Shown here one piece after another: positions 30,308-57,586 of a stretch of DNA of 64,000 nucleotides (position 1 is its first letter; every line of letters begins with the position of its first letter). Position numbers and translations under genes: made by a program. The notes under the pieces were generated by a model. The model saw only the letters and a list, made by a program, of their open reading frames with translations. It was not told the origin of the DNA and did no database searches. This stretch comes from Asaia bogorensis (GTDB taxonomy: Bacteria; Pseudomonadota; Alphaproteobacteria; Acetobacterales; Acetobacteraceae): positions 92,673-156,672 of the forward strand of contig CALQTN020000001.1 of the NCBI GenBank assembly GCA_943333505.2, given 5' to 3'.

Positions 30308-30341
30308 AAGCGCCGGGCGGCATTCCATTATCAGAGAATTG

Positions 30342-30413
30342 GATCATCATTCGTTCAATCGGCTTCGATTGGACGGATAAAGATGATCGTGAGAACAAGA
30401 CTCTAGAGTGTGA
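30342..30413. repeat. Dispersed palindromic element, type A, copy 1
   Basis: Copy of a repeat also found at 34294-34388 and 54079-54184. It contains a 47-nt hairpin (30342-30388) with outer arms GATCATC/GATGATC and inner arms CAATCG/CGATTG around a GCTT loop. A terminal motif CTAGAGTGTGACGACCGC follows at 30403-30420; it is near-identical to the end of the type B elements. The TAG (read on the minus strand) is the stop codon of the GT9 gene. It lies between the convergent S1C and GT9 genes and could act as a bidirectional terminator. Confidence 0.85.
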
Positions 30414-31293
30414 CGACCGCCAACAGCCGCGCCGCCGCCGCCGCCGCGTCCGCCACTGACAGCGACGCCATATCCGCGGTCGTCCCTACGGCAGAAGCCG
30501 CAAATCGCCCGGCGGGCGCGTATTCGGTGACCGAGGTCGGGCCGAACAGGCCAAGCGTCGGTACGCCGGTTGCAGCCGAGATATGCATCAGGCCGGAATC
30601 ATTGCCGATAAAAATTCGCACTCGCCCTAGGCAGGCGGCCGCTTCAGACAAGGTCAGCGTGCCGCATAAATCAACCGCATCCGGCAGCCGATCCAGCACC
30701 GCCTGGGCGCCCACGCGTTCATGCGCACCCGGTCCGGCAAAGATCACCGGTCGGGCACCAGGCAGCAATTCGTCGCGCAAAACCTTGAACAGGGCCACGA
30801 AATTCTCCGCTGGCCAGATTTTTCCGCTCCAGTTCGCCGTCGGTCCAAGACCGATCCACGGCCCATCGCCTGGCAGCAACTGCGCGGCACGGGCGCGATC
30901 GGCGGCACTGGTCCAGGTCACCGGCAGCGGCGGTGGGGCAACTGGCAGGATGGCGGCAATCTGATCGGTCTTGTGCCCCGGCGACTTACGCATGATCGCG
31001 CGCCGCCGGGTCGGAACCAGCCAGGCGAGAGCGGAGGCACGGATATCAACCACCAGATCCCAGCCGGTCAGAACCGTTTTTGCCCACAGCCCGAGCCAGT
31101 GCCGTCCATAGCGGCGCTTGTCGAACACGATCAGCCGCTCGAGTTGCGGCATATGCGCGAACAAACCCGCCGCCACCGGCCCGCAGGCGACAGTAAACCG
31201 CGCCTCGGGATAGCGCCGCATCAAATGGTCGAGCAATCCGGTTGACAGGACCGCATCGCCGATACGACTCGATGTTACAAACAAGATACGCAT
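30403..31293 (-). CDS. Glycosyltransferase family 9 (heptosyltransferase-like)
   Basis: GT9 enzymes transfer heptose from ADP-heptose to the LPS inner core. The 296-residue protein begins MRILFVTSSRIGDAVLSTGLLDHLMRRYP, the family's N-terminal motif. It has a GLGPTANWSGKIWPAENFVAL segment and the C-terminal signature IGNDSGLMHISAATGVPTLGLFGPT for donor binding. Its last residues (AVVTL plus stop) are encoded by the flanking repeat, so the native C-terminus may have been replaced. It is divergent from the asnB-like gene. The exact acceptor is unknown. Confidence 0.87.
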   Translation of the reverse strand: MRILFVTSSRIGDAVLSTGLLDHLMRRYPEARFTVACGPVAAGLFAHMPQLERLIVFDKRRYGRHWLGLWAKTVLTGWDLVVDIRASALAWLVPTRRRAIMRKSPGHKTDQIAAILPVAPPPLPVTWTSAADRARAAQLLPGDGPWIGLGPTANWSGKIWPAENFVALFKVLRDELLPGARPVIFAGPGAHERVGAQAVLDRLPDAVDLCGTLTLSEAAACLGRVRIFIGNDSGLMHISAATGVPTLGLFGPTSVTEYAPAGRFAASAVGTTADMASLSVADAAAAAARLLAVVTL

Positions 31294-31389
31294 ACACCTT
31301 GGCTAGCACGTCCTTGGACGTTTTGCGTGTGGGGTGTAGAGCGCGGCCTGGCACGTACAGCGCGCCCGGGTTATTCGGAGTTTCGAGCC

Positions 31390-33138
31390 ATGTGCGGCAT
31401 AGCAGGGATCATGACGCGGAACGGCCGGCCGCCGCAGGGCGGCGCGATCGCGCGCCTGCTCGCCGCCCTCGCCCATCGCGGACCGGACGGGCATGGCCAG
31501 GTGGTGCGCGACAACGTCGCCCTGCTGCAAACTAGGCTCGCGATCATCGACCTCGCGACCGGGGACCAGCCGATGTTTACCCCAAACGGCACCGCGTTGG
31601 TTGCCAATGGCGAGATCTACAACAATCTCGACCTACGCGCCGCGATGACCGATACGCCCTTCGTCACCCGATCGGATTGCGAGGTGCCGCTGTTTCTCTT
31701 TGAAGCCGAAGGGATTGGCTTCGCTGAACGCCTGCGCGGCATGTTTGCGATTGCCATCCACGACCGGGCGGCGCGGCGGCTGGTGCTGGCGCGCGACCCG
31801 TTCGGCATCAAGCCGCTCTACTATTGCGCGACAGACACCGCGTTTGCTTTTGCCTCCGAGCCACAGGCGCTGATCGCGGCAGGCTTTGTGCGCGCCGACA
31901 TCAATCCGGCCGCCCGCAACGAACTGCTGCAACTCAAATTCTCGACCGGGGCTGCGACGATTTTTCCGGGCATCAACCGCGTGCTGCCCGGCGAAACCCT
32001 GGTGATCGAGGATGGCGTGATCGTGGCCCGCCGCCAGCACGCCGCCCTGCCGGCCGGAGGGCCGACGCGGCCCGGCACGACAGGCCAACTGGAAACCGCG
32101 CTGCTGGATAGTGTTTCGATTCATCTGCGGTCCGACGTGCCCTTTGGCCTGTTCCTGTCGGGCGGCATCGACAGCGCCAGCGTGCTGGCCTTGATGCGGC
32201 GCGCCACCGGCCAAAAGGTCCATGCCATCACCTGTGGCTGGGCCGATGGGATCGGGGTCGATGAAACCGCCGAGGCCGCACGCCTTGCCGCCGCGATGGG
32301 GGCCGATTGCCATCGCGTGGAAATGGGCCCGGCGGATTTCTGGAGCCTCGCGCCCCGGATCGCGGCCGCCATTGATGACCCGACCGCCGACGCGGCCGTG
32401 CTGCCAACCTGGATGCTCGGCCGTGCCGCCCGCGCCCAGGGTTTGAAGGTGACGTTGTGCGGCGAGGGCGCGGATGAATTGTTCGGCGGCTACAGCCGCT
32501 ACCGCAAGCGCCGCCCACCGCTGTCCTGGATCAGCCGCAAGCCGCGGAGTTCGGGCGTGTTTGGCGATCCGGCCGCCCTTGCCGGATGGCGCGACGGGAT
32601 AGACGCGCTCGAAGCCGGCGCGGCCGCAGACCGCAGTCCGGTGCAGGCCGCACAAGCCATCGATATTGCCGAATGGTTGCCCAATGATCTGCTCACCAAG
32701 CTCGATCGTTGCCTGATGGCGCATGGGGTGGAAGGACGCACCCCGTTTCTCGACCCGGTCGTCGCCAATTTCGCCTTTCGTTTGCCGGACGCCCAAAAAA
32801 TCGGATGGCGCTTTGGCAAGGTCGTGTTGCGTGACTGGCTGGCAAAGGCGTTCCCGGAAGCGGGTGCCTATGCCCGCAAGAAAGGCTTCAAGCCGCCGGT
32901 TGGCGCCTGGATGCAGGCCAGGAGCGATGAACTCGGCACCCTGGTCGCGGCTCAGCCCGGGATTGCCGCCTGCCTGCCGGCAAGTCTGGTGCGGGCAAGC
33001 TTCGCCGAGGCTGCCGCCAAATCGCAACCGGCCTGGAGCCTACTGTTTTATGCGCTTTGGCATAGCCATCACGTGATCGGCATTCCCGCCGATGGCGATA
33101 TCGCGGCGACCCTCGTGGATGCCGGGCGAGCGGGATAG
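31390..33138 (+). CDS. Asparagine synthase-like glutamine amidotransferase
   Basis: AsnB-type enzymes use glutamine nitrogen and ATP to amidate a carboxylate. The 582-residue product starts MCGIAGIM, with Cys2 as the Ntn nucleophile, which fixes the start at 31390. The N-terminal class II glutaminase domain contains LAHRGPDGHG, RLAIIDLATGDQPM and NGEIYN. The C-terminal synthetase domain has the PP-motif FLSGGIDSASVLALM and GEGADELFGGYSRYRKR. AsnB-like genes often lie in polysaccharide loci where the product amidates uronic acids, and a GT9, a UDP-sugar dehydrogenase and other GTs are nearby. It could equally be the housekeeping asparagine synthetase. Confidence 0.9.
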   Translation: MCGIAGIMTRNGRPPQGGAIARLLAALAHRGPDGHGQVVRDNVALLQTRLAIIDLATGDQPMFTPNGTALVANGEIYNNLDLRAAMTDTPFVTRSDCEVPLFLFEAEGIGFAERLRGMFAIAIHDRAARRLVLARDPFGIKPLYYCATDTAFAFASEPQALIAAGFVRADINPAARNELLQLKFSTGAATIFPGINRVLPGETLVIEDGVIVARRQHAALPAGGPTRPGTTGQLETALLDSVSIHLRSDVPFGLFLSGGIDSASVLALMRRATGQKVHAITCGWADGIGVDETAEAARLAAAMGADCHRVEMGPADFWSLAPRIAAAIDDPTADAAVLPTWMLGRAARAQGLKVTLCGEGADELFGGYSRYRKRRPPLSWISRKPRSSGVFGDPAALAGWRDGIDALEAGAAADRSPVQAAQAIDIAEWLPNDLLTKLDRCLMAHGVEGRTPFLDPVVANFAFRLPDAQKIGWRFGKVVLRDWLAKAFPEAGAYARKKGFKPPVGAWMQARSDELGTLVAAQPGIAACLPASLVRASFAEAAAKSQPAWSLLFYALWHSHHVIGIPADGDIAATLVDAGRAG

Positions 33139-33144
33139 CCGACG

Positions 33145-34296
33145 ATGCAAAAAATCTCGACCTGGCTGGTGCCGCTGCTGGCGCTGCTGCTGATCCGCGC
33201 TACTGGCAGTTTTCAGCTTGCCGCGCCGGCGGCCTTCGGCACCGCACTCACAGCTCAGCTTGGCCTGAGCCATGCCGAAATTGGCATGCTGATGGGTGCG
33301 TTCATGTTGCCGGGCATTTTTGTCACCGTGGCGGCTGGATTGCTGGCCAGTCGGATCGGCGACCGTAAGGTATTGCTGGGCGGGATGGCCTTGATGGCGG
33401 CCGGCACTGCGGCATGCGCGGTGGCGAGCGGCCTGCCCGGTTTGCTGGCCGGGCGGATGATATCGGGCATTGGCGGCGTGGCGATGCTGATGCTGGTCTT
33501 GAAAATGACTGCCGATCGCTTTGCCGGGCCGATGCTGTCAACCGCGACGAGTGTGGTGATCGTGTCCTGGCCGACCGGCTTTGCGCTCAGCCTGGTGGTT
33601 CTCGGCCCGCTGGCGGTCAATACCGATGTCGCCACGCTGTTCCTGCTGTCGGGCGCGCCGGCACTGGTGGCGATCGGACTGATCGGGCTGGTCGGCCACG
33701 CCAAGCCGGCACCGATGGCGATCGTGGGAGCAAGATCGTCGGTCGGGTGGCAAATGATCCTCGCTGCGGCGCTCAGTTGGTCAGCGCTCAACGCCGCAAC
33801 AGCGGTTATGGCGGGGTTTCTGCAAACCTACCTGATCGAAACCGGACATGATCCCGCCGCCGCCGCCAGCCAGGCAAGCTTGAGTTCATGGTGCTTCGCC
33901 GCCGCAACGCCGTTCGGCGGACTGATCGCCGACCGGCTGATTGGGCGCAAGGCCGCAGTGGTGGTCGGCATCCTGCTGACCACGGCGGGCTTCCTGGCCA
34001 TTCCGCTAACCGGCGGTCATGCCTTGGCGCTTGGGGCGCTCGGGCTTGCGTTCGCGCTGATACCAGGCGCCATCACCGCCCAGGTTGGCGCGGCCACTCC
34101 CCCGGCCGCGCGGGCGTTGGTGTTTGGCTGGTACAGCGCCGCGTCTTACCTGGGGCTGACGATTGCGCCGTGGATCGCCGGCGGATTGCACGATCTGACC
34201 GATGATGCCCGGGCGCCGATCTGGTTTGGTGCAGCGGTGACCTTGGCAATGCTGGCACCTTATAGCTGGTTTCTGCGTCGGATCAGCCGGGGCTAG
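33145..34296 (+). CDS. MFS transporter (CynX/NimT-like)
   Basis: Major facilitator superfamily permease with 383 residues and about 12 membrane segments. The MFS motif between TM2 and TM3 is GLLASRIGDRKVLLGG, repeated between TM8 and TM9 as GGLIADRLIGRKAAVV. It begins 6 bp after the asnB-like gene and is likely co-transcribed with it. It is clearly similar to the MFS protein at 54182-55324 (both have GR-(M/L)-(I/M)-SG-(I/S)-G and ADRF motifs), so the two are paralogs. The stop TAG is the first three bases of a type A repeat. Substrate unknown. Confidence 0.86.
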   Translation: MQKISTWLVPLLALLLIRATGSFQLAAPAAFGTALTAQLGLSHAEIGMLMGAFMLPGIFVTVAAGLLASRIGDRKVLLGGMALMAAGTAACAVASGLPGLLAGRMISGIGGVAMLMLVLKMTADRFAGPMLSTATSVVIVSWPTGFALSLVVLGPLAVNTDVATLFLLSGAPALVAIGLIGLVGHAKPAPMAIVGARSSVGWQMILAAALSWSALNAATAVMAGFLQTYLIETGHDPAAAASQASLSSWCFAAATPFGGLIADRLIGRKAAVVVGILLTTAGFLAIPLTGGHALALGALGLAFALIPGAITAQVGAATPPAARALVFGWYSAASYLGLTIAPWIAGGLHDLTDDARAPIWFGAAVTLAMLAPYSWFLRRISRG

Positions 34297-34388
34297 ATCA
34301 TCGGACGAGCCGTGTCTCGCCCTAGAGTCTTGTTTTCACGATCATCTTTATCCGCCCATTCGAAGCCGACTGGGCGAATGATGATCTA
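34294..34388. repeat. Dispersed palindromic element, type A, copy 2
   Basis: This element fills the space between two convergent genes. It starts TAGATCATC and ends GATGATCTA, so the TAG at each end is the stop codon of the flanking MFS gene (34294-34296) and the dehydrogenase gene (34386-34388, minus). The hairpin is 34340-34386. Relative to copies 1 and 3 the inner stem has changed on both sides (GCCCA pairing with TGGGC), a compensatory change supporting a structured RNA or DNA function. Confidence 0.88.
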
Positions 34389-35690
34389 AGCGCCCTGCCC
34401 CAGATAAACCAAATCGGCAACGTCGGCGACTTCCACCGCCAAAATCCGCCAGCAATCCACCACGATCTTCCCCCCCCGAAACGCCGCAACCGGCAAATCC
34501 CGAAACGCCCGCGCCGGCGTCGCGATCACCACCAATTCGGCCGCCATCACCGCCGCCGCCGCGCTGCCAAAGGCTGTCACCGCATCCCCCAACTCCGCGC
34601 CTGCCGCGTCCAAAGCCTCCGGGTCCGCAATCAACACCCGATGCCCAGCCGCCGCCAACGCACGGGCAATCATCATTCCCTGGCTTTCCTCCACCACCGG
34701 CGTATCCGGCTTATACGCCATCCCGAGCACCGCAATCGTCGCCGCCCTCTCGCCGGCCAACCGCCGAACCAGCGCCACCACCCGCCCAACCTGCCGCCGA
34801 TTGACCGCATCGGTCGCCTCGGCCACATCCGCGCGCACCCCAAGCCCGCTCGCCAGCGTGGCCAGCGCCACATTGTCGCGGGGAAAGCACGGCCCGCCAT
34901 AACCCAGCGCCGCGCGCAGATATTTCGGACCGATCCGGCTATCCATCCCCAGCGCCGCTGTCACCACATCCACATCCGCTCCCGGCAGGCGCTCGCAAAT
35001 TTCGCTGAGCATGTTGGCGTAGCTGATCTTGGTGGTAACAAAGGTATTGACCGCGATCTTGGTGATCTCCGCGTCCACCCAGCCCATTCGCCGCACCGAC
35101 GGCACCGTTGCCAGAATGCCGCGATAAACTGCCTCCACCGCATCGCCGGCGCGCGCATCGGACTGGCCGATCAGCACCATGTCTGGGTGCAGCAGATCAT
35201 GCACCACACTGCCGAGTGCGATGAATTCCGGGCTATAGCACAGCCCGACATCAACCCCGACCCGACGCCCGCTCGCCGTTTCCAACGCCGCCCGGATTTC
35301 GCCGCCGGTCGAGCCCGGCATCATCGTGCTGGCAATATTGACCACGTGATACCCGTCTGTCCCCGCCAAGGCCGCCCCGATCCGCCGCACCGCGTCGAGC
35401 ACGAAATGATTTTCGAAGCGACCGTCCGCGCCGCTCGGGGTCGGCACGATCACATATGACAATGCACTTGCCGCAATCGCCTCGGCAAAGTCACACGTCG
35501 CCCGCAACCGGTCCCCCGCCGCATCGATGCAGCCCTGCAACCCCGGTTCGGCAACCGGCGCGCGCCCTTCATTGATCGCAGCAACGGCGCGGGGATCAAG
35601 GTCCACCCCGATCACCCGATGCCCGCGGCTCGCCAGCACGGCGGCAAGCGGCGCGCCAAGTTTCCCAAGACCGATGATCGCGATGTCCAT
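34386..35690 (-). CDS. UDP-glucose/GDP-mannose dehydrogenase family protein
   Basis: These enzymes oxidise a nucleotide sugar (UDP-Glc, UDP-ManNAc or GDP-Man) to the uronic acid with two NAD+. The 434-residue product has the Rossmann motif IAIIGLGKLGAPLAAVLASRGHRVIGVDLD, IASTMMPGSTGG, the catalytic region ALGYGGPCFPRDNVAL with the active cysteine, and the C-terminal LGMAYKPDTPVVEESQG. The frame is open upstream to 35915. The ATG at 35690 has AGGA upstream and matches the family start. The stop codon lies in the repeat. It probably forms an operon with the upstream glycosyltransferase 8 bp away. The exact sugar is undetermined. Confidence 0.9.
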   Translation of the reverse strand: MDIAIIGLGKLGAPLAAVLASRGHRVIGVDLDPRAVAAINEGRAPVAEPGLQGCIDAAGDRLRATCDFAEAIAASALSYVIVPTPSGADGRFENHFVLDAVRRIGAALAGTDGYHVVNIASTMMPGSTGGEIRAALETASGRRVGVDVGLCYSPEFIALGSVVHDLLHPDMVLIGQSDARAGDAVEAVYRGILATVPSVRRMGWVDAEITKIAVNTFVTTKISYANMLSEICERLPGADVDVVTAALGMDSRIGPKYLRAALGYGGPCFPRDNVALATLASGLGVRADVAEATDAVNRRQVGRVVALVRRLAGERAATIAVLGMAYKPDTPVVEESQGMMIARALAAAGHRVLIADPEALDAAGAELGDAVTAFGSAAAAVMAAELVVIATPARAFRDLPVAAFRGGKIVVDCWRILAVEVADVADLVYLGQGA

Positions 35691-35698
35691 CCCGATTC

Positions 35699-37624
35699 CT
35701 AAAACTTGCGGGGTTGGAGCCACGCCGAGGTAATAACCCCCGCGGCCGCCCCGATGCTGGTCAGCCGCAATTCCAGGCTTTGCGGCACACCGCTGCCAAC
35801 CGGGATATCGAAGTCGAGCACAATATCGCCCGCCAACATCGGATAGCGCCGCATCAGCCGCGTCGGCCAGGCATAAACCGTCGCCTGCAACACGCCCGGC
35901 AACCAACCGCGCCATGCCAGCCGCAACCGATACGCCCCCGGCGCCAACAGCATTGGCGGGCCATGCAGCACCTGACCGCGCCGGCCCGGAATGATCTCGA
36001 TGCCATCCTCGCTCCGCCGACTGGCATTCCCCGGCTTGAGCCGCGCCAGAATATCAGCGGGCAAGCCAACCGGCGGATTGCGCAAACCCTGGCGCAATCG
36101 TGTCGCCAAGGGCGCCGAGGCCGCCCCAACCACGCTGCCGATCAGGCTTTCCCATTGGTTCAGCACGGCGTTCACCCCAATGAAGCGGCGCTGAGCCGCC
36201 ATTGGTTGGGCCAGATGCGCATCTTCGGCCGCCGCCATCGCGCGCAACCCGTCGGCGACGAAGCGCAAAACCGGTTCCTGATCCAACGGTACCCGCGAGT
36301 CTGGCGCCCGATCCAACGGCATGCCGAAATCGAACACGAACGCCCCGGCCCCGGTGCCAATCGCTGCGATGTCGGCCCATATTGCATTATCGGGCAAATC
36401 CGGACCCAGCCAGTCCGCATTGCGGGCCACCCAAATCGGGGTTGAAAACCCAAGTGCCGCCCAGGCCACTGCGAAGCGCCCCAGCAACTCGCGCCGCGCC
36501 CCGAACCAGCCCAATTGAAGGTCGCGCGGATAGGCCACCAAGGCATCGATCAGAAATGGCACGACATGGCGTGCGTCATAGTCGACGCGGTCGCGGCTGG
36601 CGCGCCCATGCAACAAATGGCTCGGCGCTGCCATCGGCGCCCCAATCGCCTGCCGCAGCGCGCCAACATAGATCGCGGCACCCTTGTCAAGCCGGATTTC
36701 CTCGATGACCGCATCAGCCAGCCCCCAATTGGGCTGTCCCGGTGCAACCGCGTCGCGAACGTCATCGACGAACCCCCGCCAGTCATTGGCAACGCTGCCA
36801 GGCTTATGCGCGGCGGTCACCTGGCGCGTGTGATCGCAATGATAACCGCCGAGACGAGTGTCGAGCGCCCCGGTTCGCCCACGGATCAATGCCAGTCTGC
36901 GCGCGATATTGGCGTCCACGTGCCAGCCCAGCAGCATGCGTTCGTCGAACCCATGCATCGCCAGCAGATCTTCGCGCAGAATCAGTTGAAAATCGCCCGG
37001 ACCGTCGAAGCCGAAAAAGTCATTATCGGCGGCAACAATCTCGTTGAGGTGAAAATCCCTCCCCCACGCCGCCACAGTCGCCATGGTCCCGGTCGGGTCG
37101 CCGCGATCAAGTGATTCCCACAAAGTTTCCGGGATCTCAAAACGCGGCAGGTGGTAGTACCCGTCTTGCAGGGGCCGGATGATCTCGGTCAGGCTGGCGC
37201 CGTCATGCGGCACGAAAATCATATCGGTGTTGGTCGATAATACCCATCGATTGGCTGGGTTGGCGCGGCGCACTGCGACATTGCGCGCGATCGGTTCGAG
37301 CGCGACCAGGTGGGTCCGGCCGCAAAACCGCGCGTGCTGCGCCGGCCGCACCCGCAGCACACGAAGCTTCGCCCGCGCGCAGTCGGTCAGCGTGTCGGCA
37401 ATCGCTTCGGGGAATGTCGGGAAATCATCCGGGGTGTTGTAGTCCACGAACAGGATTTCATCGTCGGGATCGGTCAGCAATGCGGCGATCGTGTTCAAGC
37501 TCAACGCCGCCCGCTTGTGCAGGTTGTAGCCGTAGCTGTCGTTGCGGCCGTAGAGAATGACGGAGATCAGGGAAGCTACCTCGCGGTTGGGCTTGGTTGT
37601 GGCGCCGGAAATTGCAGGATGCAA
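35699..37624 (-). CDS. Large glycosyltransferase-like protein, start uncertain
   Basis: The reliable part begins at LISVILYGRNDSYGYNLHKRAALSLNTIA (from 37570), a GT2-like start. TNTDMIFVPHDG may be a DxD-like nucleotide-binding site, and GDFQLILREDLLAMHGFDERMLLGWHVDANIARRL follows. The remaining about 400 residues are not recognised by me. No ATG lies near the conserved start: TTG at 37624 is the nearest standard start, and a CTG at 37570 has GAGG upstream. The natural 5' end may have been lost at the junction with the truncated tauD. It precedes the dehydrogenase in the same direction, suggesting surface-glycan synthesis. Confidence 0.65.
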   Translation of the reverse strand: MHPAISGATTKPNREVASLISVILYGRNDSYGYNLHKRAALSLNTIAALLTDPDDEILFVDYNTPDDFPTFPEAIADTLTDCARAKLRVLRVRPAQHARFCGRTHLVALEPIARNVAVRRANPANRWVLSTNTDMIFVPHDGASLTEIIRPLQDGYYHLPRFEIPETLWESLDRGDPTGTMATVAAWGRDFHLNEIVAADNDFFGFDGPGDFQLILREDLLAMHGFDERMLLGWHVDANIARRLALIRGRTGALDTRLGGYHCDHTRQVTAAHKPGSVANDWRGFVDDVRDAVAPGQPNWGLADAVIEEIRLDKGAAIYVGALRQAIGAPMAAPSHLLHGRASRDRVDYDARHVVPFLIDALVAYPRDLQLGWFGARRELLGRFAVAWAALGFSTPIWVARNADWLGPDLPDNAIWADIAAIGTGAGAFVFDFGMPLDRAPDSRVPLDQEPVLRFVADGLRAMAAAEDAHLAQPMAAQRRFIGVNAVLNQWESLIGSVVGAASAPLATRLRQGLRNPPVGLPADILARLKPGNASRRSEDGIEIIPGRRGQVLHGPPMLLAPGAYRLRLAWRGWLPGVLQATVYAWPTRLMRRYPMLAGDIVLDFDIPVGSGVPQSLELRLTSIGAAAGVITSAWLQPRKF

Positions 37625-37629
37625 GCTAG

Positions 37630-38280: not shown

Positions 38281-38324
38281 TCGGGCGCTCGACGGAACAT
38301 ACTGGCGCGCCTATCAGGGCTACG

Positions 38325-39368: not shown

Positions 39369-39381
39369 TGCCCAACCGCCC

Positions 39382-40515: not shown

Positions 40516-40616
40516 TAACTTGCCTCGGCGCGTTGGCTTGCGATCCGCGGCATGGCGGGAAGGTCAGGCGGCGCGCCCAATTTGACAGAACCCAACATCC
40601 CCCGCACTGTCCCAGG

Positions 40617-43357
<2,741 letters not shown>

Positions 43358-44075: not shown

Positions 44076-44082
44076 TCAGCCT

Positions 44083-44187
44083 GGAGCGTGATGACCGTAG
44101 GTGGAATCACACGAAGGTCTGAATCACGCGACCAAACAAAGACTTAGAACATGATGACCGCGCCTGTCAGCGGTCATCATGCGCTAA
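44083..44187. repeat. Dispersed palindromic element, type B, copy 1
   Basis: About 105 bp, nearly identical as reverse complement to 57483-57586. One end is GGAGCGTGATGACCG. The other carries a hairpin with arms TGATGACCGC and GCGGTCATCA around a short loop (44151-44180). The shared interior includes TTTGTTTGGTCGCGTG and TTCGTGTGATTCCACCTAC (minus strand). It lies between convergent genes. The last four codons and the TGA stop of the Nudix gene lie inside it. Confidence 0.9.
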
Positions 44188-44994
44188 AGCCGCGCTGAGG
44201 CGGGCGGCTTCGTCGCCCGTCACCAGCCCGTGCCGGATAAACAGTGCGATCAGCACGACACTGACATTGAATTTGAACGCGTCGGTGGTGCGCACCGCGT
44301 GCAATGCGCGTGAGATCGGCCACAACTCGAAGCCCGCAACTTCCCCATCGGTGGGCGTGGGAATGAAATCGTCGGGTAATTCAACCTCGTAGCAGTGTAA
44401 AATGTCACGCCGCAGGCCCTCCGGACGCTCCATCGCATAGCTGATCCTGGTGCATAGCCGGGCATTGGCCAGCAATGCGGCAGGCATCGCGGCTTCTTCC
44501 ATGGCTTCCTTGACCAGACAATCCCAAGGCGTGTAGCCGGCCGGAACGCCGCCGGCGACGATATGGTCGAGCTTGTTGGGGTCGAGCGCCTTGTCGGCGG
44601 CGCGCCGGGCGACCCACAGATGCAAGCCATCCGCGCGTCGGACCAGCCCATCAAGATGCACGCCTGCGGCCGCAATGCCGAAGCTGGGCAGTGCGCCGCG
44701 ATCGATGGTGGAGAGCACCGGCCCATCTGGGTTTGCGCGGACGTCAAACATTTCACCGCGTACCCGGCCGAAGCCCAATCCGGCCATCTGGCGGCCAAGA
44801 TCGGGCAGGTCGGCCGGGTTCGGCAGGGCCAGCCCCTGGGCATCGCGCTGCACACCGGCGAGACGCTCAAGCGCCGCAGCGACGACCGGGGTCAGCCACC
44901 CCACGATCTGCTCGCCATGCCGGAACGCAATCCGCGATCCCGGCAACTCGGCATTATTGCAGGCAGTAAGATGGCGTAACAGGGAGTTGTCCAT
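44167..44994 (-). CDS. Nudix hydrolase with DUF4743 (Tnr3-like)
   Basis: The 275-residue protein has an N-terminal DUF4743 domain (about 10-120) and a Nudix domain. The Nudix box is GGVPAGYTPWDCLVKEAMEEAAMP, with the K-E-A-M-E-E core rather than R-E-x-x-E-E, as in the thiamine-pyrophosphokinase-linked Tnr3 Nudix domains. Studied Tnr3-type enzymes hydrolyse oxidised, toxic thiamine diphosphate analogues. The nearby riboswitch-controlled thiC fits such a role, but function here is inferred. The C-terminal residues HDDR come from the repeat element. Confidence 0.85.
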   Translation of the reverse strand: MDNSLLRHLTACNNAELPGSRIAFRHGEQIVGWLTPVVAAALERLAGVQRDAQGLALPNPADLPDLGRQMAGLGFGRVRGEMFDVRANPDGPVLSTIDRGALPSFGIAAAGVHLDGLVRRADGLHLWVARRAADKALDPNKLDHIVAGGVPAGYTPWDCLVKEAMEEAAMPAALLANARLCTRISYAMERPEGLRRDILHCYEVELPDDFIPTPTDGEVAGFELWPISRALHAVRTTDAFKFNVSVVLIALFIRHGLVTGDEAARLSAALAHDDR

Positions 44995-47250: not shown

Positions 47251-47326
47251 TGGTGGAGCCAAGCGGGATCGAACCGCTGACCTCCTCATTGCGAACGAGG
47301 CGCTCTCCCAGCTGAGCTATGGCCCC
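47251..47326 (-). tRNA. tRNA-Ala (CGC)
   Basis: On the minus strand the 76-nt gene starts GGGGCCATAGCTCAGCTGGG and ends GGCTCCACCA with an encoded CCA. The anticodon arm is CCTCG TTCGCAA TGAGG, giving anticodon CGC, which reads GCG alanine codons. The acceptor stem has the G3-U70 pair that is the main alanine identity element. The T loop is GGTTCGATCCC. All four arms fold. Confidence 0.97.
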
Positions 47327-47411
47327 ATCCCCGGCTAAAACCGCCCTGGCGCGTCCCCAGGTCGGTGGGCGCGGACAATGCTTTCGGCGGACAGGCAAGT
47401 CAAGCGATATA

Positions 47412-47459: not shown

Positions 47460-47576
47460 TTGGTCAGTGCAGTGCCAAGCTCCAGCGACTGGTATGGATG
47501 CAGTGTAACCCAACATCGGGTTGCAGGGCGAATGCCACACAGCTAGGTTGCGGCGCCGGAGCAAGGGTCGCCGCAC

Positions 47577-49592: not shown

Positions 49593-49643
49593 GGTTCGCG
49601 CAGTGTAGCAGATTTTCCGTTCAGGTGACAGGACTCGTTGGCT

Positions 49644-50825: not shown

Positions 50826-50925
50826 TTCAGCGGTCCTAGCGAAAACGTGATGGGTGAATTGCGCATTTAGCGGCAGTCTCGCACAGTTGTGAACCTTTCA
50901 GTCGCATTTCGGCGTCCAATATAGG

Positions 50926-51042
50926 CATTGAAGCAGCGTTTCTGGCTTCGGACTTCCTCCCTGACCGCGCCGCCCTTTCTCCTCGGGCCTTGCGCGCACC
51001 TTTTGGGCGGTGCTGACCGGTTGGTTGGCGCCGCCTTTTTTT
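50926..51042 (+). ncRNA. Candidate small RNA with intrinsic terminator
   Basis: The 342-bp gap between the CoA-transferase and recX holds no convincing gene, but it holds a plus-strand transcript candidate. It begins after a weak -10-like AATATAGG (50918-50925) and has a short hairpin GAAGC...GCTTC. Two C/U-rich anti-Shine-Dalgarno-like stretches follow (CTTCCTCCC and TTTCTCCTCG). It ends in a strong hairpin plus T7. This layout is typical of trans-acting small RNAs that block ribosome binding sites. No homology is claimed. Confidence 0.4.
51006..51042 (+). terminator. Rho-independent terminator
   Basis: Plus strand: arms GGCGGTGC (51006-51013) and GCGCCGCC (51028-51035) form an 8-bp GC-rich stem with one G-U pair, followed by TTTTTTT (51036-51042). 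Both flanking genes are on the minus strand, so it must end a plus-strand transcript from this gap. Confidence 0.75.
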
Positions 51043-51167
51043 GATTGCACCACCGTTCCTCTGATCAAGAGGATGCAAATCGCCTCAGCGTTGGCAAGGA
51101 TAGACAAGATTTTCAGGCGCATTTTTGGTCGAATTCTGATCCCGATGCGCAACATGCAAAGGGATAT

Positions 51168-51731
51168 TTAGCCCGCCCGAACCCGATGCAACAATGCCTC
51201 CGCCTCCCCCCGATCCATCGCAAGCGCCCGCAGCGCCATGTCTTGGCTGAACCCTGCCCGGGCAAAACTGCCGAGTGCGCGCAGCTTTTGCACCGGATCG
51301 AGCGGCCCCGCCCCAAACGGCCCGACCCGGCGGCGGCGGGCGAGGGCGATTGCGGCGGCGAGTTCAGCGTCCGGGTCGTCAGGCAGCGCATCTTGCGCCA
51401 CAGAAGCCGCCACCCCGCGCACCGCGAGATGGGCGGCAATACCGCGGCGGGATTTGCCGGCGCGGCTCAGGCTTTGCGCCCTTGTGGCGGCAAAAGCCGC
51501 GTCATTCAGCAAGCCGGCGTTGGCGAGACGGATGATCTCGGCGCGTGCCGCAGCTTTTGCCGCCCCAACAGCCTCATCATCCGGCGCAACCAGGCGCGCC
51601 CAGCGCATGATCCGTCGGTCGAGCACGCGCAGCAGCCCGGCCTGGGTCGTCGCATAGCGCGCAAGATGGCGCAGGGCTGCATCGTGCAGCACCGTTGCGG
51701 TAGGGGTTGGTGGCGGTGGTTTGTCGACCAT
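51168..51731 (-). CDS. recX: Regulatory protein RecX
   Basis: RecX binds RecA filaments and modulates recombination and the SOS response. The 187-residue protein is basic and mostly helical. It has ALRHLARYATTQAGLLRVLDRRI at the N-terminus, LANAGLLNDAAFAATRAQSLSRAGKSRRGIAAHLAVRGV in the middle and a FARAGFSQDMALRAL C-terminal repeat, all RecX-like three-helix units. recA is not adjacent, which is common in alphaproteobacteria. Confidence 0.88.
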   Translation of the reverse strand: MVDKPPPPTPTATVLHDAALRHLARYATTQAGLLRVLDRRIMRWARLVAPDDEAVGAAKAAARAEIIRLANAGLLNDAAFAATRAQSLSRAGKSRRGIAAHLAVRGVAASVAQDALPDDPDAELAAAIALARRRRVGPFGAGPLDPVQKLRALGSFARAGFSQDMALRALAMDRGEAEALLHRVRAG

Positions 51732-51920
51732 TGCTGAACATACTCATCTCTGCAAAGCCGTTATGCACGTAAATCCCAGATCCGTGCCGTGCAATATTTG
51801 ACTTAGCGCCCCGGCCCGGCACATTCTCCCGCCCTTCCGAAACCGTACGCGCATGGGCGCGACTGCGGTAGAAGCCCGGAAACCGGTCCCTGACCGGCCC
51901 CCATCGAGGACGATCCAACA

Positions 51921-53117
51921 ATGATCTCCGCTCTGTTGCCGAACTACAACCGTGCACCCCTTGCTTTCGAGCGGGGCGAAGGCGCCTGGCTGTGGACGAC
52001 TGACGGGCGACGATTCCTCGATTTCGGCGCCGGCATCGCCACCGCGTCGATCGGACATGGCCACAAGGGCCTCGCCGACGCGATCGCGGCACAAGCCCAC
52101 AAGGTGATGCACGTCTCGAACCTGTACCGCATTCCGCAGGCGGAAATGCTGGCGCAGCGTCTGGTGGACGCGACTTTTGCCGACACGGTGTTCTTCTGCA
52201 ATTCGGGCGCCGAAGCCAACGAAGGCATGATCAAGATGATGCGCCGCGCGATGTTCGCCAACGGGCATCCGGAACGCTACAAGATAATCTGCTTCGAAGG
52301 CGCGTTCCATGGCCGCACCCTCGCGACCCTGGCTGCCACCGGCAACCATCATTACCTCGAAGGGTTCGGCCCGCCGGTCGAAGGCTTCGTGCATGTGCCG
52401 TTGAACAACCTCAACGCGGTGCGCGACGCGATCGACGGCCAGACCGCCGGGATCATGATCGAACCGGTGCAAGGCGAAGGCGGCATCCGCTCGGCCGATA
52501 TCCAGTTCATGAAGGATTTGCGCGCGACCTGCGACGAATTCGGCATTTTCCTCGGTCTCGATGAAATCCAGTGCGGCATGGGGCGCACCGGCAAGCTGTT
52601 CGCGCATGAATGGGCGGGCATTGAACCGGACGTGCTCTCGGCGGCCAAAGGCATTGGCGGCGGCTTCCCACTCGGCGCGGTGCTGGCCAAGGAAGCGGTT
52701 GGCAAATACCTCGTCCCCGGCACCCATGGCACCACCTATGGCGGCAATCCGCTGGCCTGCACCGCGGGCAACGCGGTGTTGGACGTGATCCTGGCGCCAG
52801 GCTTCCTCGATGATGTTGTGCGCAAGGGCGACGCGCTGATGGCGGGGCTGAAGCAGATCGCGGTGGATTTCCCATCCGTGTTCGAAGGCGCGCGTGGCAA
52901 GGGGCTGATCCTCGGTCTCAAATGCGTTGTGCCGGCCGGCGAAGTGCAGGCAGCGTTTACCGCGCAGGGCCTGATGACCGTGACAGCGGGCGAAAACGTG
53001 GTGCGTATCGTGCCGCCGCTGGTGGTGACCGATAGTGACATCACCGAAGCGCTGGCGATGATGCGCCGCGGTGCCGCGGCCTGCGTGCCGGGCGCCACCA
53101 AAGCCGCAGCCCAGTGA
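51921..53117 (+). CDS. argD: Acetylornithine transaminase
   Basis: ArgD is the PLP-dependent class III aminotransferase making N-acetylornithine in arginine synthesis; it can also act in lysine synthesis. The 398-residue product has [18 protein letters not shown], the FEGAFHGRT motif, [20 protein letters not shown] with the PLP-binding Asp, and [13 protein letters not shown] with the Schiff-base lysine. A TTGACT-like -35 lies about 120 bp upstream, and GAGGA precedes the ATG. It runs into argF with a 10-bp gap. Confidence 0.95.
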
Positions 53118-53127
53118 GCCTGCGACC

Positions 53128-54081
53128 GTGAGCGGCGCTCCGGCGCGGAAGACCGACGGGGAGGCACCGCCTCCCCGTCACTTCATTGACATCAAGGACC
53201 ACGAACCGGCCGTGCTGCGGCACATGCTGGATATTGCCGGCAACCTGAAAGCGGCCGGGCGCGATGCGCTGAAGCCGCTCACCGGCAAGACCTTGGCGCT
53301 GATCTTCGAAAAGCCGAGCACCCGCACGCGGGTAAGCTTCGAGGTCGGGATGCGGCAGCTCGGCGGCGAGGTGATCACGCTCTCTGGTACCGAAATGCAA
53401 CTGGGGCGCGGCGAGACGATTGCCGATACCGCCCGGGTGATGTCGCGCTACGTCGATGCCATTGTGCTGCGCACCTTCGGTCATGCAAGGCTGATGGAAA
53501 TGGCCAATGCGGCGAGCATTCCGGTGATCAACGGGCTGACCGATACGTCGCATTCGGTGCAGTTGATGGCCGATGTGATGACGTTCGAGGAACATCGCGG
53601 CCCGATTGCCGGCCAAATTGTGGCGTGGTCGGGCGATGGCAATAATGTCGCGCGCAGCTGGATCGAAACAGCGGCGCGGTTTGACTTCACCCTGCGCCTG
53701 GCGACTCCGCCGGAATTGCAGCCGGACCCGGAAATGGTGGCCTGGGCGCGCGCGCAAGGCGCCAAGATCGAACTGACCTCCGATCCGGCCGAGGCGGTCG
53801 ATGGCGCGCGCTGCGTGGTCACCGACACCTGGATCAGCATGTCCGACGACCCCAACACCAACCGGCATAATCTGCTGTCGCCCTATCAGGTCAATTCGGC
53901 GCTGATGGCGAAAGCGGCAAAAGACGCGATCTTCATGCACTGCCTGCCGGCGCATCGTGGCGAGGAGGTCACCGATGAGGTGATCGACGGGCCGCAATCG
54001 GTGGTATTCGACGGGGCGGAAAACCGGTTGCACGCGCAGAAGGGCGTGCTGGTTTGGGCATTGCTGGGGGCGGGACGCTAG
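53128..54081 (+). CDS. argF: Ornithine carbamoyltransferase
   Basis: ArgF (OTCase) joins ornithine and carbamoyl phosphate into citrulline. The 317-residue product has the carbamoyl-phosphate motif [29 protein letters not shown], the ornithine motif DTWISMSDD and the [11 protein letters not shown] cysteine motif. The frame opens earlier, inside argD; the GTG at 53128 gives normal length and a 10-bp gap to argD. The stop TAG is the first three bases of a type A repeat. Confidence 0.95.
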
Positions 54082-54184
54082 AGCGTGATCCGTCGAAGCT
54101 CAATCAGCAGACACGCTCTTGAGTCTCGTTTTCACGATCATCTTTATCTGTCCAATCGAAGCCGATTGAACGAATGATGATCTA
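54079..54184. repeat. Dispersed palindromic element, type A, copy 3
   Basis: This element fills the gap between convergent argF and the MFS gene. It starts TAGAGCGTGATC (argF stop TAG) and ends GATGATCTA (MFS stop TAG on the minus strand at 54182-54184). The 47-nt hairpin is 54136-54182, with outer arms GATCATC/GATGATC and inner arms CAATCG/CGATTG. An inner segment, TTTTCACGATCATCTTTATC, is shared with copy 2 and, with one change, copy 1. Confidence 0.9.
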
Positions 54185-55324
54185 ACCGGCCAACCGCTTC
54201 TGCCAAGCCCATAACGGGATTGCCAGCAGCGACAGCAACCCGGCGCAGACCAGCGCACCGCTCGGGTCGCCGACCCAATCGGCGGCTCGTCCGCAAATCG
54301 ATGGGATGACCGAGGCGCCGGCGTAATAGGTCGTGTAAAATATCCCCATCGCGACAGCGCGGTTTTGCGGCTTGGCGGCGAGCGTGCCCATTTCGATAAT
54401 CAAACCGCCATGCAGCGACCCGATAGTGCCGAACAAGGCCGCCCATAGCAGCGGCCAATCGGCGAAGGTTGGGCCGACGACGCCGATAAACGTCACCAGA
54501 GTTCCAACCAGAAACACTTTTCCGCCGCCGAAACGGGTGGCGACAATACCGCCGAGCAGGATCGCCGGCAGATTGCCCCAGGTCGCCAACGACATCACCG
54601 CCCCGGTCAGGCCGAGGGAATGGCCGCGCCCGGCCATCAAACTCGGCAAGAACGCGAGGTAGTTGTGATAGCCGGCGTTGTAGGCAGTCCAGATCAGCCC
54701 GGCGATCGCGACCAGCCAGATTTCATGGCGCGACGGCCAGGCGGCGCTGCGGGCCGGGGCGGCGGGCGCGTCACGCCAGCACAACAGAAACAACAGGAAC
54801 GGCAATGCTGCGGCAATCGCACCGGCGATGAAAGCCGCTTGTACCCCGAAGCTGCTCGCGATACCCGGCAGAATGACCTGCGCCAACCCGAGCCCGATCG
54901 GGAAACTACCGACAATCGCACCCATGATATGGGTGAAGCTGTGGCCGATGAAACGGTCGGCGATGATCTTACCTTGCAGCACGGTGAGCGCGACGACGCC
55001 GCTGCCCGACATCAGGCGCCCGACCATGATCGCCTCGACCGAGCCGAGCGAGGCTACCAGGCTCCCCAGCACCATCAGGCTGAAACCGGTCAATGCAATC
55101 GGATAGTCACCAAAGCGTCGTGCGGCAAAGCCGGCCGGCAGCGCCACCGCCACACCCGCCGCCATATAGACGCCGACCAAAGTGCCGAGCATGGCGTAGT
55201 CGAGTCCGTAAAACTTGGCGAGGTCCGGCCCGAGGGTCGAAATCGTTTGCAGCTGGAAGCCGAACGCGATGCGCGACAGACCGATCGCCAGCGCCACGCC
55301 GGCGGCGTTGCCACGCAGCGTCAC
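54182..55324 (-). CDS. MFS transporter (CynX/YbfB-like)
   Basis: A 380-residue MFS permease with about 12 membrane segments. GFAARRFGDYPIALTG is the TM2-3 loop motif. It resembles the MFS protein at 33145-34296 across its length. The GTG at 55324 overlaps the upstream GNAT stop as GTGA, which fixes the start. The frame is open further upstream but the extra residues look non-native. Its stop lies in a type A repeat. Substrate unknown. Confidence 0.86.
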   Translation of the reverse strand: MTLRGNAAGVALAIGLSRIAFGFQLQTISTLGPDLAKFYGLDYAMLGTLVGVYMAAGVAVALPAGFAARRFGDYPIALTGFSLMVLGSLVASLGSVEAIMVGRLMSGSGVVALTVLQGKIIADRFIGHSFTHIMGAIVGSFPIGLGLAQVILPGIASSFGVQAAFIAGAIAAALPFLLFLLCWRDAPAAPARSAAWPSRHEIWLVAIAGLIWTAYNAGYHNYLAFLPSLMAGRGHSLGLTGAVMSLATWGNLPAILLGGIVATRFGGGKVFLVGTLVTFIGVVGPTFADWPLLWAALFGTIGSLHGGLIIEMGTLAAKPQNRAVAMGIFYTTYYAGASVIPSICGRAADWVGDPSGALVCAGLLSLLAIPLWAWQKRLAG

Positions 55325-55803
55325 GAGACCGGCTTTTCCATGTCCACCGCAGTGGGATAGGCATAGCCCGGATGGGCATATTCGCGGGTTTCGACGAAGC
55401 CGCAACGGGCAAACAGGCGGCGATTATCGGTCAGCACCAGGCGGGTCGACAGCAAGAGCCGATCGAGGCCCATGGCCCGACAGGCATCTTCGGCGGCAGC
55501 AATCAACGCCGGGGCCGCACCCTTGCCACGGGCATCCAGGGCGACCGACAAACGGCCGACGTAAAGCCCGGCGGGTTCGCGATGCCATAGCAGCGCTCCG
55601 ACAACGTGATCGCCGACCACCGCGCAGGCACCACCGCCGGTCGTAAGCTCGGCGGTGACGCTTTCCCCGGTTTCCTTAACCGCCGAGGGCGGCGGATCGG
55701 TCGCCACCGATTGCGCCGCAAAGGCCGCGCGGATCAGGGCGGCAACCGCCGCCGCATCAGCTTGCCGCATGTCGCGGATGATAAAGTCTTGGCGCCCCTG
55801 CAT
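55321..55803 (-). CDS. GNAT family acetyltransferase
   Basis: A 160-residue GCN5-related N-acetyltransferase. The acetyl-CoA-binding motif A is LYVGRLSVALDARGKGAAPALIAAAEDACRAMG, and motif B is LSTRLVLTDNRRLFARCGFVETREYAHPGY. It overlaps the downstream MFS gene by 4 bp, so acetylation and export of a common small molecule is possible (inference). Divergent from hslO. Confidence 0.87.
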   Translation of the reverse strand: MQGRQDFIIRDMRQADAAAVAALIRAAFAAQSVATDPPPSAVKETGESVTAELTTGGGACAVVGDHVVGALLWHREPAGLYVGRLSVALDARGKGAAPALIAAAEDACRAMGLDRLLLSTRLVLTDNRRLFARCGFVETREYAHPGYAYPTAVDMEKPVS

Positions 55804-55848
55804 AGCGGCAAGCTAGCCGACGGCGCGCGCTCTGCCTATGTTACGTCG

Positions 55849-56823
55849 ATGCGTGATCCTGTTGCGAATGCCTCCCCCGCGTTTCTTGATGCCGATCGAC
55901 CCGACGTCCCCGATCTGGTGGTGCCGCGCGGCATCCTGCCGTTCTATCTACCTGACCGCCCGGTGCGCGGCCGGTTGATCCGGCTCGGCAAACTCGCCGA
56001 CGCGCTGTTGAGCCGGCACGACAATCAAGATGCTGTCACCAGCCTGACCGGGCAGGCGCTGGCATTGGTGGCGGCGCTGGCATCGGCGTTGAAATTCAAA
56101 GGCTCGTTCAGCCTGCAAGCCAAGGGCGATGGACCGATCCGCATGCTGCTGGCCGATTGCACCGATAATGGCGAATTGCGCGGCTACGCCCAGGCCAATC
56201 CGGACCGCATGGCGGACTTGCTGGCGCGTGAAGCTGCGCCATCCGCGCGGGACCTGATCGGCGATGGCTATCTCGCCTTCACGGTTGACCAGGGTGTGCA
56301 CACTGAACGCCACCAGGGCATCGTTTCGATTACCGGCACCAGCCTGTCCGACATGGCGCTGCATTATTTCGCGACATCAGAACAAATCGCCTGCACCATC
56401 CGCCTCGCCTGCGCGCGCACCCCGGCGGGCTGGCGGGCGAGTGCACTGATCCTGGAAAAAATCGCCGGCGGCGGCGGGGTTGATCCGGGCCTGACCGCTT
56501 CCGAGCAGGAAGAAGCCTGGCGCACCGCAAATATCCTTGCCGAAACGCTCACTGATGGTGAACTGCTCGATGATACCGTGGCATCGGACACGCTGCTGTT
56601 CCGTCTGTTCCACACCGAAGGGGTCGCCGCCGATCTGCCGCGCGCGCTGGCCTATGGCTGCCGGTGTTCGCGCCAACGCCTGACCGGGGTGCTGGAGACC
56701 TTCAGCACTGACGACCTCGACCACATGGACACCGAGGGCGCGATCGTGATGACCTGCGAATTCTGCAACTACGATTTCCGCTTCGACCGCGGCGATGTTC
56801 GCGGCCAGCGGACAGACCATTGA
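55849..56823 (+). CDS. hslO: Redox-regulated chaperone Hsp33
   Basis: Hsp33 is a cytoplasmic holdase activated by oxidative stress: zinc release from a C-terminal cysteine cluster unfolds the switch domain. The 324-residue product has the N-terminal LPFYLPDRPVRGRLIRLGKLADALLSRH and VDQGVHTERHQGIV. Its four zinc cysteines are in YGCRCSRQRL (CxC) and MTCEFCNYDF (CxxC). The ATG at 55849 matches the family start. argD-argF-hslO are commonly adjacent in alphaproteobacteria, but here an MFS-GNAT pair lies between argF and hslO. Confidence 0.94.
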   Translation: MRDPVANASPAFLDADRPDVPDLVVPRGILPFYLPDRPVRGRLIRLGKLADALLSRHDNQDAVTSLTGQALALVAALASALKFKGSFSLQAKGDGPIRMLLADCTDNGELRGYAQANPDRMADLLAREAAPSARDLIGDGYLAFTVDQGVHTERHQGIVSITGTSLSDMALHYFATSEQIACTIRLACARTPAGWRASALILEKIAGGGGVDPGLTASEQEEAWRTANILAETLTDGELLDDTVASDTLLFRLFHTEGVAADLPRALAYGCRCSRQRLTGVLETFSTDDLDHMDTEGAIVMTCEFCNYDFRFDRGDVRGQRTDH

Positions 56824-56831
56824 GAGCCAAC

Positions 56832-57485
56832 ATGACCCTGCGCGCCCTGCTGCTGCTTTTGCCATTACTGACCCTGGTGGCCTGCGAAACCGCGCCGCCG
56901 GAGCCGGCCTACGAAGCGCCGTCCTATGATTATCTGCCGAAGATCAAGCTGAATGTCCGCGACATTGACATCAACGACAGCTGGGCGCCGCGCGGCACGC
57001 AGCGCCATGTCGAGGCACGGTCGCCAGTTCAGCCACGGGATGCATTGCGCGCCATGGCGGTGGAGCGGCTGATCAGCGGTGGCACCAAGGGACGGGCTGC
57101 ATTCTCCATCACCGATGCGTCATTGGTGCAGGCCAGCGGCAAGGTTACGGCACATTTCGCCGTCAGGATCGATTTGTTCGATGACGCCAATGCCAAGCTT
57201 GCCGAGGTGCCGGCGGATGTGTCGCGCGTGGCACCACTGCCCGATGACGGGGCAACGGCGACCAGGATCGTGCTGTACCGGCTGGTCAACGCGGCGATGG
57301 CGGATATGAATGTCGAGCTGGAATACCAGCTGCGGCAGAAGATGAAGACGCTCCTGCAAACCACGAGTGCCGCAGCGCCCGAAGCCGGACCAGTGGTTAC
57401 CGAAGATCTCAACGCTTCGAAAACCGGTGATCCAAACCCGAGCGGGGTGTTAAAGGCGCCACCAGGTGCGAAACCGACGCCTTAG
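56832..57485 (+). CDS. Hypothetical lipoprotein
   Basis: A 217-residue protein with signal peptide and lipobox LTLVAC (Cys18 or so). The mature part has IKLNVRDIDINDSWAPRGTQRHVEARSPVQPRDALRAMAVERLISGG and a C-terminal coiled-coil-like stretch (MADMNVELEYQLRQKMKTLLQ). This type sits after hslO in other alphaproteobacteria, to my recollection. Function unknown. The stop TAG overlaps the start of a type B repeat. Confidence 0.82.
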   Translation: MTLRALLLLLPLLTLVACETAPPEPAYEAPSYDYLPKIKLNVRDIDINDSWAPRGTQRHVEARSPVQPRDALRAMAVERLISGGTKGRAAFSITDASLVQASGKVTAHFAVRIDLFDDANAKLAEVPADVSRVAPLPDDGATATRIVLYRLVNAAMADMNVELEYQLRQKMKTLLQTTSAAAPEAGPVVTEDLNASKTGDPNPSGVLKAPPGAKPTP

Positions 57486-57586
57486 AGCGTGATGACCGCT
57501 GATCGGCGCGGTCATCACGCTCTATCTCTTTGTTTGGTCGCGTGGCCAGACATTCGTGTGATTCCACCTACGGTCATCACGCTCTA
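57483..57586. repeat. Dispersed palindromic element, type B, copy 2
   Basis: A 104-bp element with perfect 16-bp inverted ends, TAGAGCGTGATGACCG at 57483-57498 and its complement at 57571-57586. A third, inverted copy of the 16-mer at 57509-57524 forms a 16-bp stem with the left end and a 10-nt loop, followed by TCTCTTTGTTT, which is terminator-like. The left TAG is the stop of the upstream lipoprotein; the right TAG (minus strand) is the stop of the oxidase subunit IV gene. Confidence 0.93.

What the first reader, a model, noticed from the sequence alone, without database searches (positions are those of the whole stretch)
30403..57586. Repeat elements supply the stop codon of at least seven genes
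Element ends start with TAG. That TAG is the stop of the GT9, MFS-1, dehydrogenase, argF, MFS-2, lipoprotein and COX IV genes, and the Nudix gene ends with HDDR-stop inside an element. In three convergent pairs both genes stop exactly at the two ends of one element. This suggests elements that act as portable stop-plus-terminator modules, or insertion preference at gene ends.
Basis: partly seen in the sequence, partly recalled or inferred. Interest (0 to 1): 0.7.

Follow-up and report, generated by a model that had tools for sequence, protein, structure and literature searches.

The report
Mini-transposons that land in stop codons
In one Acetobacteraceae genome, repeats of about 105 bases, which likely spread as mini-transposons, sit exactly on gene stop codons that most tested element-free relatives already have at the same place, and the stop reads TAG because a doubled TA is followed by the repeat's own first base G.

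Summary
Seven window genes stop on the terminal TAG of a repeat, and three convergent pairs stop at both ends of one copy. In 15 contigs (1.47 of 4.52 Mb) I found 101 repeat clusters. At intact ends 61 genes stop on the terminal TAG and 3 run into the element; the baseline for YTAR sites in gene tails is 64% in frame.

The interpretation needs turning round. Of 19 abutting gene ends testable against same-genus relatives, 14 have the stop at the same codon in an element-free relative. Two clean empty sites show one TA (CTAA, TTAA) shared by two overlapping convergent stops. So the repeats mostly do not supply the stop: they sit at Y-TA-R with TA doubled, and their first base G rebuilds TAG on both strands.

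Nine IS5-type insertion sequences in related genomes show the same TA flanks at YTAR, so an IS5/IS427-type transposase is the likely mobiliser. The cognate copy was not found.

Most interesting and unexplained: 16 of 32 tightly packed convergent gene pairs with a YTAR carry an intact copy, against 4 of 78 codirectional pairs.

The parts
30340..30405 (-). solo A2 unit; right terminal TAG is the stop of the GT9 gene; left TA mutated to TG
34294..34388 (+). A-type copy (95 bp, diverged left part) between MFS (+) and dehydrogenase (-), both stopping at its ends; flanks C-TA..TA-A
44082..44186 (-). B copy; left TA mutated to TG; NUDIX gene (-) runs into it out of frame and ends AHDDR-stop
54079..54184 (+). 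A copy (A1+A2) between argF-type gene (+) and MFS (-); single-TA empty site CTAA in relative G001
57483..57586 (+). B copy (B1+B2) between the 217-aa gene (+) and the 51-aa gene (-); single-TA empty site TTAA in relative G001
30403..31293 (-). GT9 gene (PF01075) ending on the terminal TAG
33145..34296 (+). MFS gene ending on the terminal TAG
34386..35690 (-). UDP-sugar dehydrogenase gene ending on the terminal TAG
44167..44994 (-). NUDIX gene whose C-terminus is replaced by element-encoded residues
53224..54081 (+). carbamoyltransferase (argF-type) gene ending on the terminal TAG
54182..55324 (-). MFS gene ending on the terminal TAG
56832..57485 (+). 217-aa protein gene ending on the terminal TAG (no Pfam match)
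57584..57739 (-). 51-aa protein gene ending on the terminal TAG (no Pfam match; missed by my gene finder)

Best explanation
These repeats are miniature elements, likely moved in trans by an IS5/IS427-type transposase, that occupy the sequence Y-TA-R with the TA doubled, so that a TAA or TAG stop lying in the target reads TAG: the host's TA plus the element's first base G. Because YTAR contains TAR on both strands, the stop of a gene on either side survives, and two overlapping convergent stops (CTAG, CTAA, TTAG, TTAA) survive together. Each insertion leaves a YTAR at both ends (YTAG and CTAR), so further copies can join by sharing a TA. Shown: target, single TA at two empty sites, stop at the same codon in relatives for 14 of 19 testable gene ends, no intact copy inside a gene, excess at stops and at tight convergent pairs. 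Inferred: transposition by an IS5-type enzyme, removal of coding insertions by selection, and the cause of the excess at convergent ends.
For: YTAR at 57 of 59 fully intact copies against 984 of 5203 noncoding TA sites; 56 of 58 without end rescue. Two single-TA empty sites in G001 at 54079 and 57483. Inferred pre-insertion codons 22 TAA and 20 TAG at 42 gene ends. Stop at the same codon in an element-free relative: 14 of 19 testable ends. Taking out the element re-opens a gene in 0 of 59 intact copies. Units joined by one shared TA at 74 of 86 junctions. Nine distinct IS5-type copies with TA-flanked inverted ends, all Y-TA..TA-R, among 63 loci scanned; IS427-group members of 832-865 bp with 2-bp duplications are published (PMC3281130, passages). 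Same pattern in 21 B copies of three other genera, 9 stops against 1 run-in.
Against: No IS with the full ends of A or B was found; shared tips are little more than GAG..CTC, and the scan for the nine IS copies required TA flanks. 5 of 19 testable gene ends have the stop elsewhere in the relatives seen (GT9 -2, C14:62170 right +2, C4:51933 left +14, C8:18659 right +5/-3, C3:65320 right -2 codons), and no baseline for stop conservation at element-free gene ends was measured. 10 of 42 incompletely kept clusters give a gene across the junction when removed; my extrapolated ends are unreliable there, but in 4 the abutting gene itself lengthens. The replication in other genera is weak against the stricter baseline (p=0.08). 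Movement was not observed.
Confidence: 0.8

Rival explanations
1. Portable stop-plus-terminator modules: the elements bring the stop codon and a hairpin terminator and are kept because genes need them.
For: B folds strongly (z -7.3 and -6.0) and has a terminator-like hairpin plus T-rich tail in one orientation. 16 of 32 tight convergent pairs with a YTAR are occupied. 5 of 19 testable gene ends do have another stop position in the relatives.
Against: 14 of 19 testable ends have the stop at the same codon without the element. No orientation bias at stop-abutting ends. The A family folds less strongly (z -2.8 to -5.1).
Confidence: 0.12
2. Same elements, but the excess at stops is targeting rather than selection: the transposition machinery prefers the ends of transcription units, for example convergent ends.
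For: In convergent contexts stop YTAR are occupied 23 of 69 times, other convergent YTAR 6 of 108 (p=1.8e-6). No sequence beyond YTAR is conserved, so the context must matter.
Against: Selection against insertions in operons, promoters and genes, plus retention of useful ones, can give the same counts. Per pair, tight against wider convergent pairs differ less (16 of 32 against 10 of 42, p=0.03).
Confidence: 0.35
3. The mobiliser is an IS630-type (TA-duplicating) transposase rather than IS5/IS427.
For: IS630 DDE_3 matches exist in the own genome (10 matches); TA duplication and the RUP/IS630-Spn1 precedent (PMC2229807, passages).
Against: No TA-flanked inverted ends found in the 25 IS630 loci scanned, some truncated or remnant; nine IS5-type copies match in target and tips.
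Confidence: 0.12
4. REP/RAYT elements (repetitive extragenic palindromes moved by a Y1 transposase).
For: Hairpins, high copy number, 3' location, mixed arrays.
Against: No Y1_Tnp match in the own genome; one just above cut-off in one of five relatives searched. TA is doubled at two sites and ends bear TA, not a GTAG or CGTC tag (tag names from the PMC3733652 listing).
Confidence: 0.03

Closest known systems
MITEPsy1 / ISPsy2 (IS5 family), Pseudomonas syringae, PMC3189936 (passages)
   Same: 100-nt element without genes, 18-nt inverted repeats, linked to an IS5-family IS, target CTAG or YTAA, shown there to transpose
   Different: 4-nt duplication; six copies in the genome described, two of them interrupting loci; no settling in stop codons described in the passages read; here TA is doubled and the G..C tips rebuild TAG
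IS427 group of the IS5 family, e.g. Paracoccus elements of 832-865 bp, PMC3281130 (passages)
   Same: 2-bp duplication in most listed members; the IS5-type copies found here are 836-950 bp with TA-flanked ends at YTAR
   Different: Autonomous; no member with the full A or B ends found; the group label for the copies found here is inferred from duplication and length
RUP / IS630-Spn1, Correia and other TA-ended small repeats, PMC2229807 (passages and one section)
   Same: Small repeats with TA at both ends, TA target, moved in trans
   Different: Other transposase family for RUP; stop-codon targeting not described in the passages read
REP sequences close to stop codons in E. coli, PMC12306157 (passages)
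   Same: Palindromes lying just downstream of stop codons; effects on translation within 15 nt reported there
   Different: They lie downstream and do not form part of the codon; moved by RAYT (recalled), absent from this genome
Br-REP1/Br-REP2 of Bradyrhizobium, PMC5082802 (passages)
   Same: Alphaproteobacterial palindromic repeats in 3' UTRs, one between convergent genes
   Different: No TA duplication or stop-codon overlap described in the passages read

Membership tests
MITE | Short, no transposase gene | tested here: met
   A 106 bp, B 105 bp, units 42-66 bp
MITE | Terminal inverted repeats | tested here: met
   B: 17-base ends (query 1-17 matches the far end reversed); A: shorter and imperfect (TAGAGCGTGAT against TAGATCATCAT)
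MITE | Target-site duplication | tested here: met
   One TA at two empty sites, two TA at the filled sites
MITE | Ends shared with an autonomous element in the same genome | tested here: inconclusive
   Only GAG..CTC tips and target shared with IS5-type copies; no full match found; fragmented assembly
MITE | Observed transposition | not testable with these tools
   Only presence/absence between species seen
IS5/IS427 group (as source of the transposase) | 2-bp TA duplication at YTAR | tested here: met
   Nine distinct IS copies; published 2-bp duplications
IS5/IS427 group (as source of the transposase) | IS5-type DDE transposase domains | tested here: met
   PF01609 and PF13586 on the remnant, PF13340 loci
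REP/RAYT | Y1 transposase gene in the genome | tested here: not met
   PF01797 absent from G000 as held
IS630-mobilised MITE | Ends shared with an IS630 element flanked by TA | tested here: inconclusive
   None in 25 scanned loci, several truncated
Intrinsic terminator | Hairpin followed by a T run, stopping transcription | tested here: inconclusive
   Pattern at one end of B only; termination itself not testable here

The most novel reading that the evidence does not exclude
A stop-codon-safe transposon code. G..C ends and a YTAR/TA target make every TAA or TAG stop preceded by Y, on either strand, a landing site that rebuilds itself as TAG and regenerates YTAR at both ends, so copies can stack without harming a gene. 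Beyond that passive safety, the elements have become bidirectional insulators that settle between convergent genes with no room for a terminator: half of such pairs with a YTAR are occupied.
Probability: 0.28. Interest if true: 0.75.

Novelty: new variant of a known kind. Interest (0 to 1): 0.55.

Why it matters
It explains how a mobile repeat can reach high copy number in a gene-dense genome: its target includes the one codon, the stop, that its own ends rebuild. It turns 'repeats lie between genes' into a measurable rule (YTAR, phase, strand, gene spacing), and it makes testable whether small mobile elements are kept as transcription insulators between tightly packed convergent genes. In this genome the stop codons of many genes are part host, part transposon.

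Tried and rejected
Rejected: one third as the only null, because 64% of YTAR in gene tails are already the stop; both baselines are given. Rejected: a target motif beyond YTAR (nothing conserved over 15 bases each side). Rejected as the cause of the pattern: a directional terminator (no orientation bias). Rejected: REP/RAYT. No Rfam family matched the repeats in window 30000-58000 at gathering scores. No plasmid record held A or B. A hunt for an autonomous partner with full A or B ends found none.

Print: ten searches of the paper library listed no title or abstract on elements landing in stop codons. I saw listings for all of these, passages of PMC10969869, PMC10359306, PMC2229807, PMC5082802, PMC3281130, PMC6382973, PMC12306157 and PMC3189936, and one section of PMC2229807; no paper was read whole. 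Most subscription journals are not in the library.

Rows dropped or left out: the pair analysis kept 1177 neighbour pairs and left out those with damaged or several elements (41 of 1218 expected from 1233 genes on 15 contigs). YTAR occupancy counts only the 59 of 101 clusters with both ends intact. Of 22 joined sites made, 12 were searched; they hold 16 abutting gene ends, of which 12 had a usable relative: 8 with the stop at the same codon, 4 without. With the 7 window genes that makes 14 of 19. A first reading by eye gave 7 of 12 sites; one search replaces it. The other-genus set took 20 loci from the listed hits (14 of G022, 5 of G008, 1 of G014), not all. searches of whole genomes scored at most 40 candidates each, so their match lists are not full counts. 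The gene finder is my own and misses very short genes.
Full report
What is there. The window lies in contig C1 of a 4.52-Mb, 151-contig genome. Its gene at 43119 finds its nearest named relatives in Acetobacteraceae and Rhodospirillales MAGs. Two repeat families occur, A (106 bp) and B (105 bp), bounded by TA, with G as first and C as last inner base. Each is a pair of smaller units sharing a TA: A1 (42 bp) + A2 (66 bp); B1 (42 bp, a near-perfect hairpin) + B2 (65 bp). In 15 contigs (1,467,511 bases) I counted 193 units in 107 arrays: 64 canonical pairs, 31 single units, 12 other combinations; 74 of 86 junctions are exactly one shared TA.

The observation. The coordinates check out. Pfam supports GT9, two MFS, a UDP-sugar dehydrogenase, a carbamoyltransferase and NUDIX; the 'lipoprotein' and 'COX IV' proteins had no Pfam match. 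Gene calls elsewhere come from a Markov-model finder that I wrote and trained on long ORFs; it misses very short genes such as the 51-aa one.

Is it more than chance? Of 153 intact ends in 101 clusters, 61 are the stop of a gene, 3 are entered by a gene out of frame, 48 have a gene stopping earlier, 35 face a gene start, 6 have no neighbour. 61:3 is far from one third (p=1e-25) and from the 64% baseline for YTAR in gene tails (p=4e-9). Stronger gene calls give 58:3 and 48:2; no end rescue gives 60:3. In 21 B copies of three other genera it is 9:1 (p=4e-4 against one third, 0.08 against the stricter baseline).

What it is. The flanks of 57 of 59 fully intact copies read Y-TA[..]TA-R; 984 of 5203 noncoding TA sites do. 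Nothing further is conserved. In relative G001 the sites of the 54079 and 57483 copies are empty and hold a single TA, within CTAA and TTAA; in both, the stops of the two convergent genes overlap on that TA. The doubled TA thus comes from the target and the third base of today's stop, G, from the element.

Did the element supply the stop? Mostly not. I extended the alignment of each abutting gene's last 60 residues to the stop in four same-genus genomes. Six of the 7 window genes have the stop at the same codon in at least one element-free relative; GT9 has it two codons earlier. Of 16 abutting gene ends at 12 further sites, 4 found no relative, 8 have the stop at the same codon (C2:48532 left, C4:51933 right, C1:9139, C3:19916, C4:39330, C6:6453, C6:73580, C7:82005) and 4 do not (C14:62170 right +2, C4:51933 left +14, C8:18659 right +5/-3, C3:65320 right -2 codons). 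TAA, TAG and TGA all occur in the relatives. No baseline for stop conservation at element-free gene ends was measured. At 42 gene ends the codon inferred before insertion is TAA (22) or TAG (20); TGA, the commonest stop (631 of 1233), contains no TA.

Where copies sit. No cluster lies inside a called gene although 1129 empty YTAR do. An insertion would itself break a gene call, so I also removed each element and called genes again: 0 of 59 intact copies leave a gene across the junction. 10 of 42 incompletely kept ones do, where my extrapolated ends are unreliable; in 4 of them the abutting gene lengthens, so a few may be truncations. Occupancy by fully intact copies: 6 of 13 YTAR that serve two stops, 30 of 240 that serve one, 6 of 108 in convergent spacers, 12 of 561 in codirectional, 2 of 255 in divergent ones. 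Per gene pair with a YTAR: 16 of 32 convergent pairs spaced -4 to 30 bp, 4 of 78 codirectional pairs of that spacing, 10 of 42 wider convergent pairs, 1 of 108 divergent pairs; with stronger gene calls the first two are 12 of 23 and 4 of 69. Selection against damage explains the empty genes and promoters. It does not by itself explain why stop YTAR beat other convergent YTAR (23 of 69 against 6 of 108, p=1.8e-6): either convergent ends are preferred in transposition, or copies there are kept, for example as insulators.

Mobiliser. Among 63 IS5-type loci scanned, nine distinct copies have inverted ends flanked by TA (the scan required TA), and all nine read Y-TA..TA-R: L305, L321, L322, L323, L327, L403, L406, L407, L411. 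L407 and L411 sit in the terminal TA of repeat units. L313, L314 and L326 have three-base flanks instead. IS427-group members of 832-865 bp with 2-bp duplications are published (PMC3281130, passages), IS5 is tied to YTAR (PMC10359306, passages), and MITEPsy1 targets CTAG or YTAA (PMC3189936, passages). So the kind is known. No IS with the full ends of A or B was found. RAYT is absent from the genome as held; IS630 is present but without TA-flanked ends in my scan.

Terminator question. B folds strongly (z -7.3, -6.0), A less (z -2.8 to -5.1), and one end of B gives a hairpin with a T-rich tail. Genes abut either end equally, so a directional terminator does not place them; insulation in both directions stays open.

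The exception in the window. The NUDIX gene enters the 44082 copy out of frame and ends ...ALAHDDR-stop; relative G003 at that place reads towards its stop without the element.

Verdict. Observation confirmed and widened; 'elements supply the stop' mostly overturned; settling in existing stops supported, with a rule that preserves the stop on both strands. New MITE families of an IS5-like kind with an unusual, countable relation to stop codons.

Noticed in passing
window 40613-40721 (+): TPP riboswitch (RF00059, 70.4 bits) upstream of the ORF at 40768-42588.
   Followed up: no
window 47254-47326 (-): A tRNA by Rfam.
   Followed up: no
L369 (G001) against L358 (G003): G001 carries an A-like element of a different subfamily in the same stop codon that is filled in the own genome at C6:6453, while G003 is empty there: possible repeated use of one stop.
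   Followed up: partly
window 54081/54182; L213, L216, L228: Relatives G002, G003 and G004 have about 0.8-1.1 kb of other DNA between argF and the MFS gene, so this convergent junction differs repeatedly.
   Followed up: partly
L407 around 1246-1416 (G022): Another genus has further TA-ended hairpin repeats in arrays, with an IS5-type copy seated in a terminal TA.
   Followed up: no
L197 around 1840-1980 (own contig C13): An IS5-type remnant ends ..GGACTC-TG directly against a B copy, as if both once shared the TA.
   Followed up: partly
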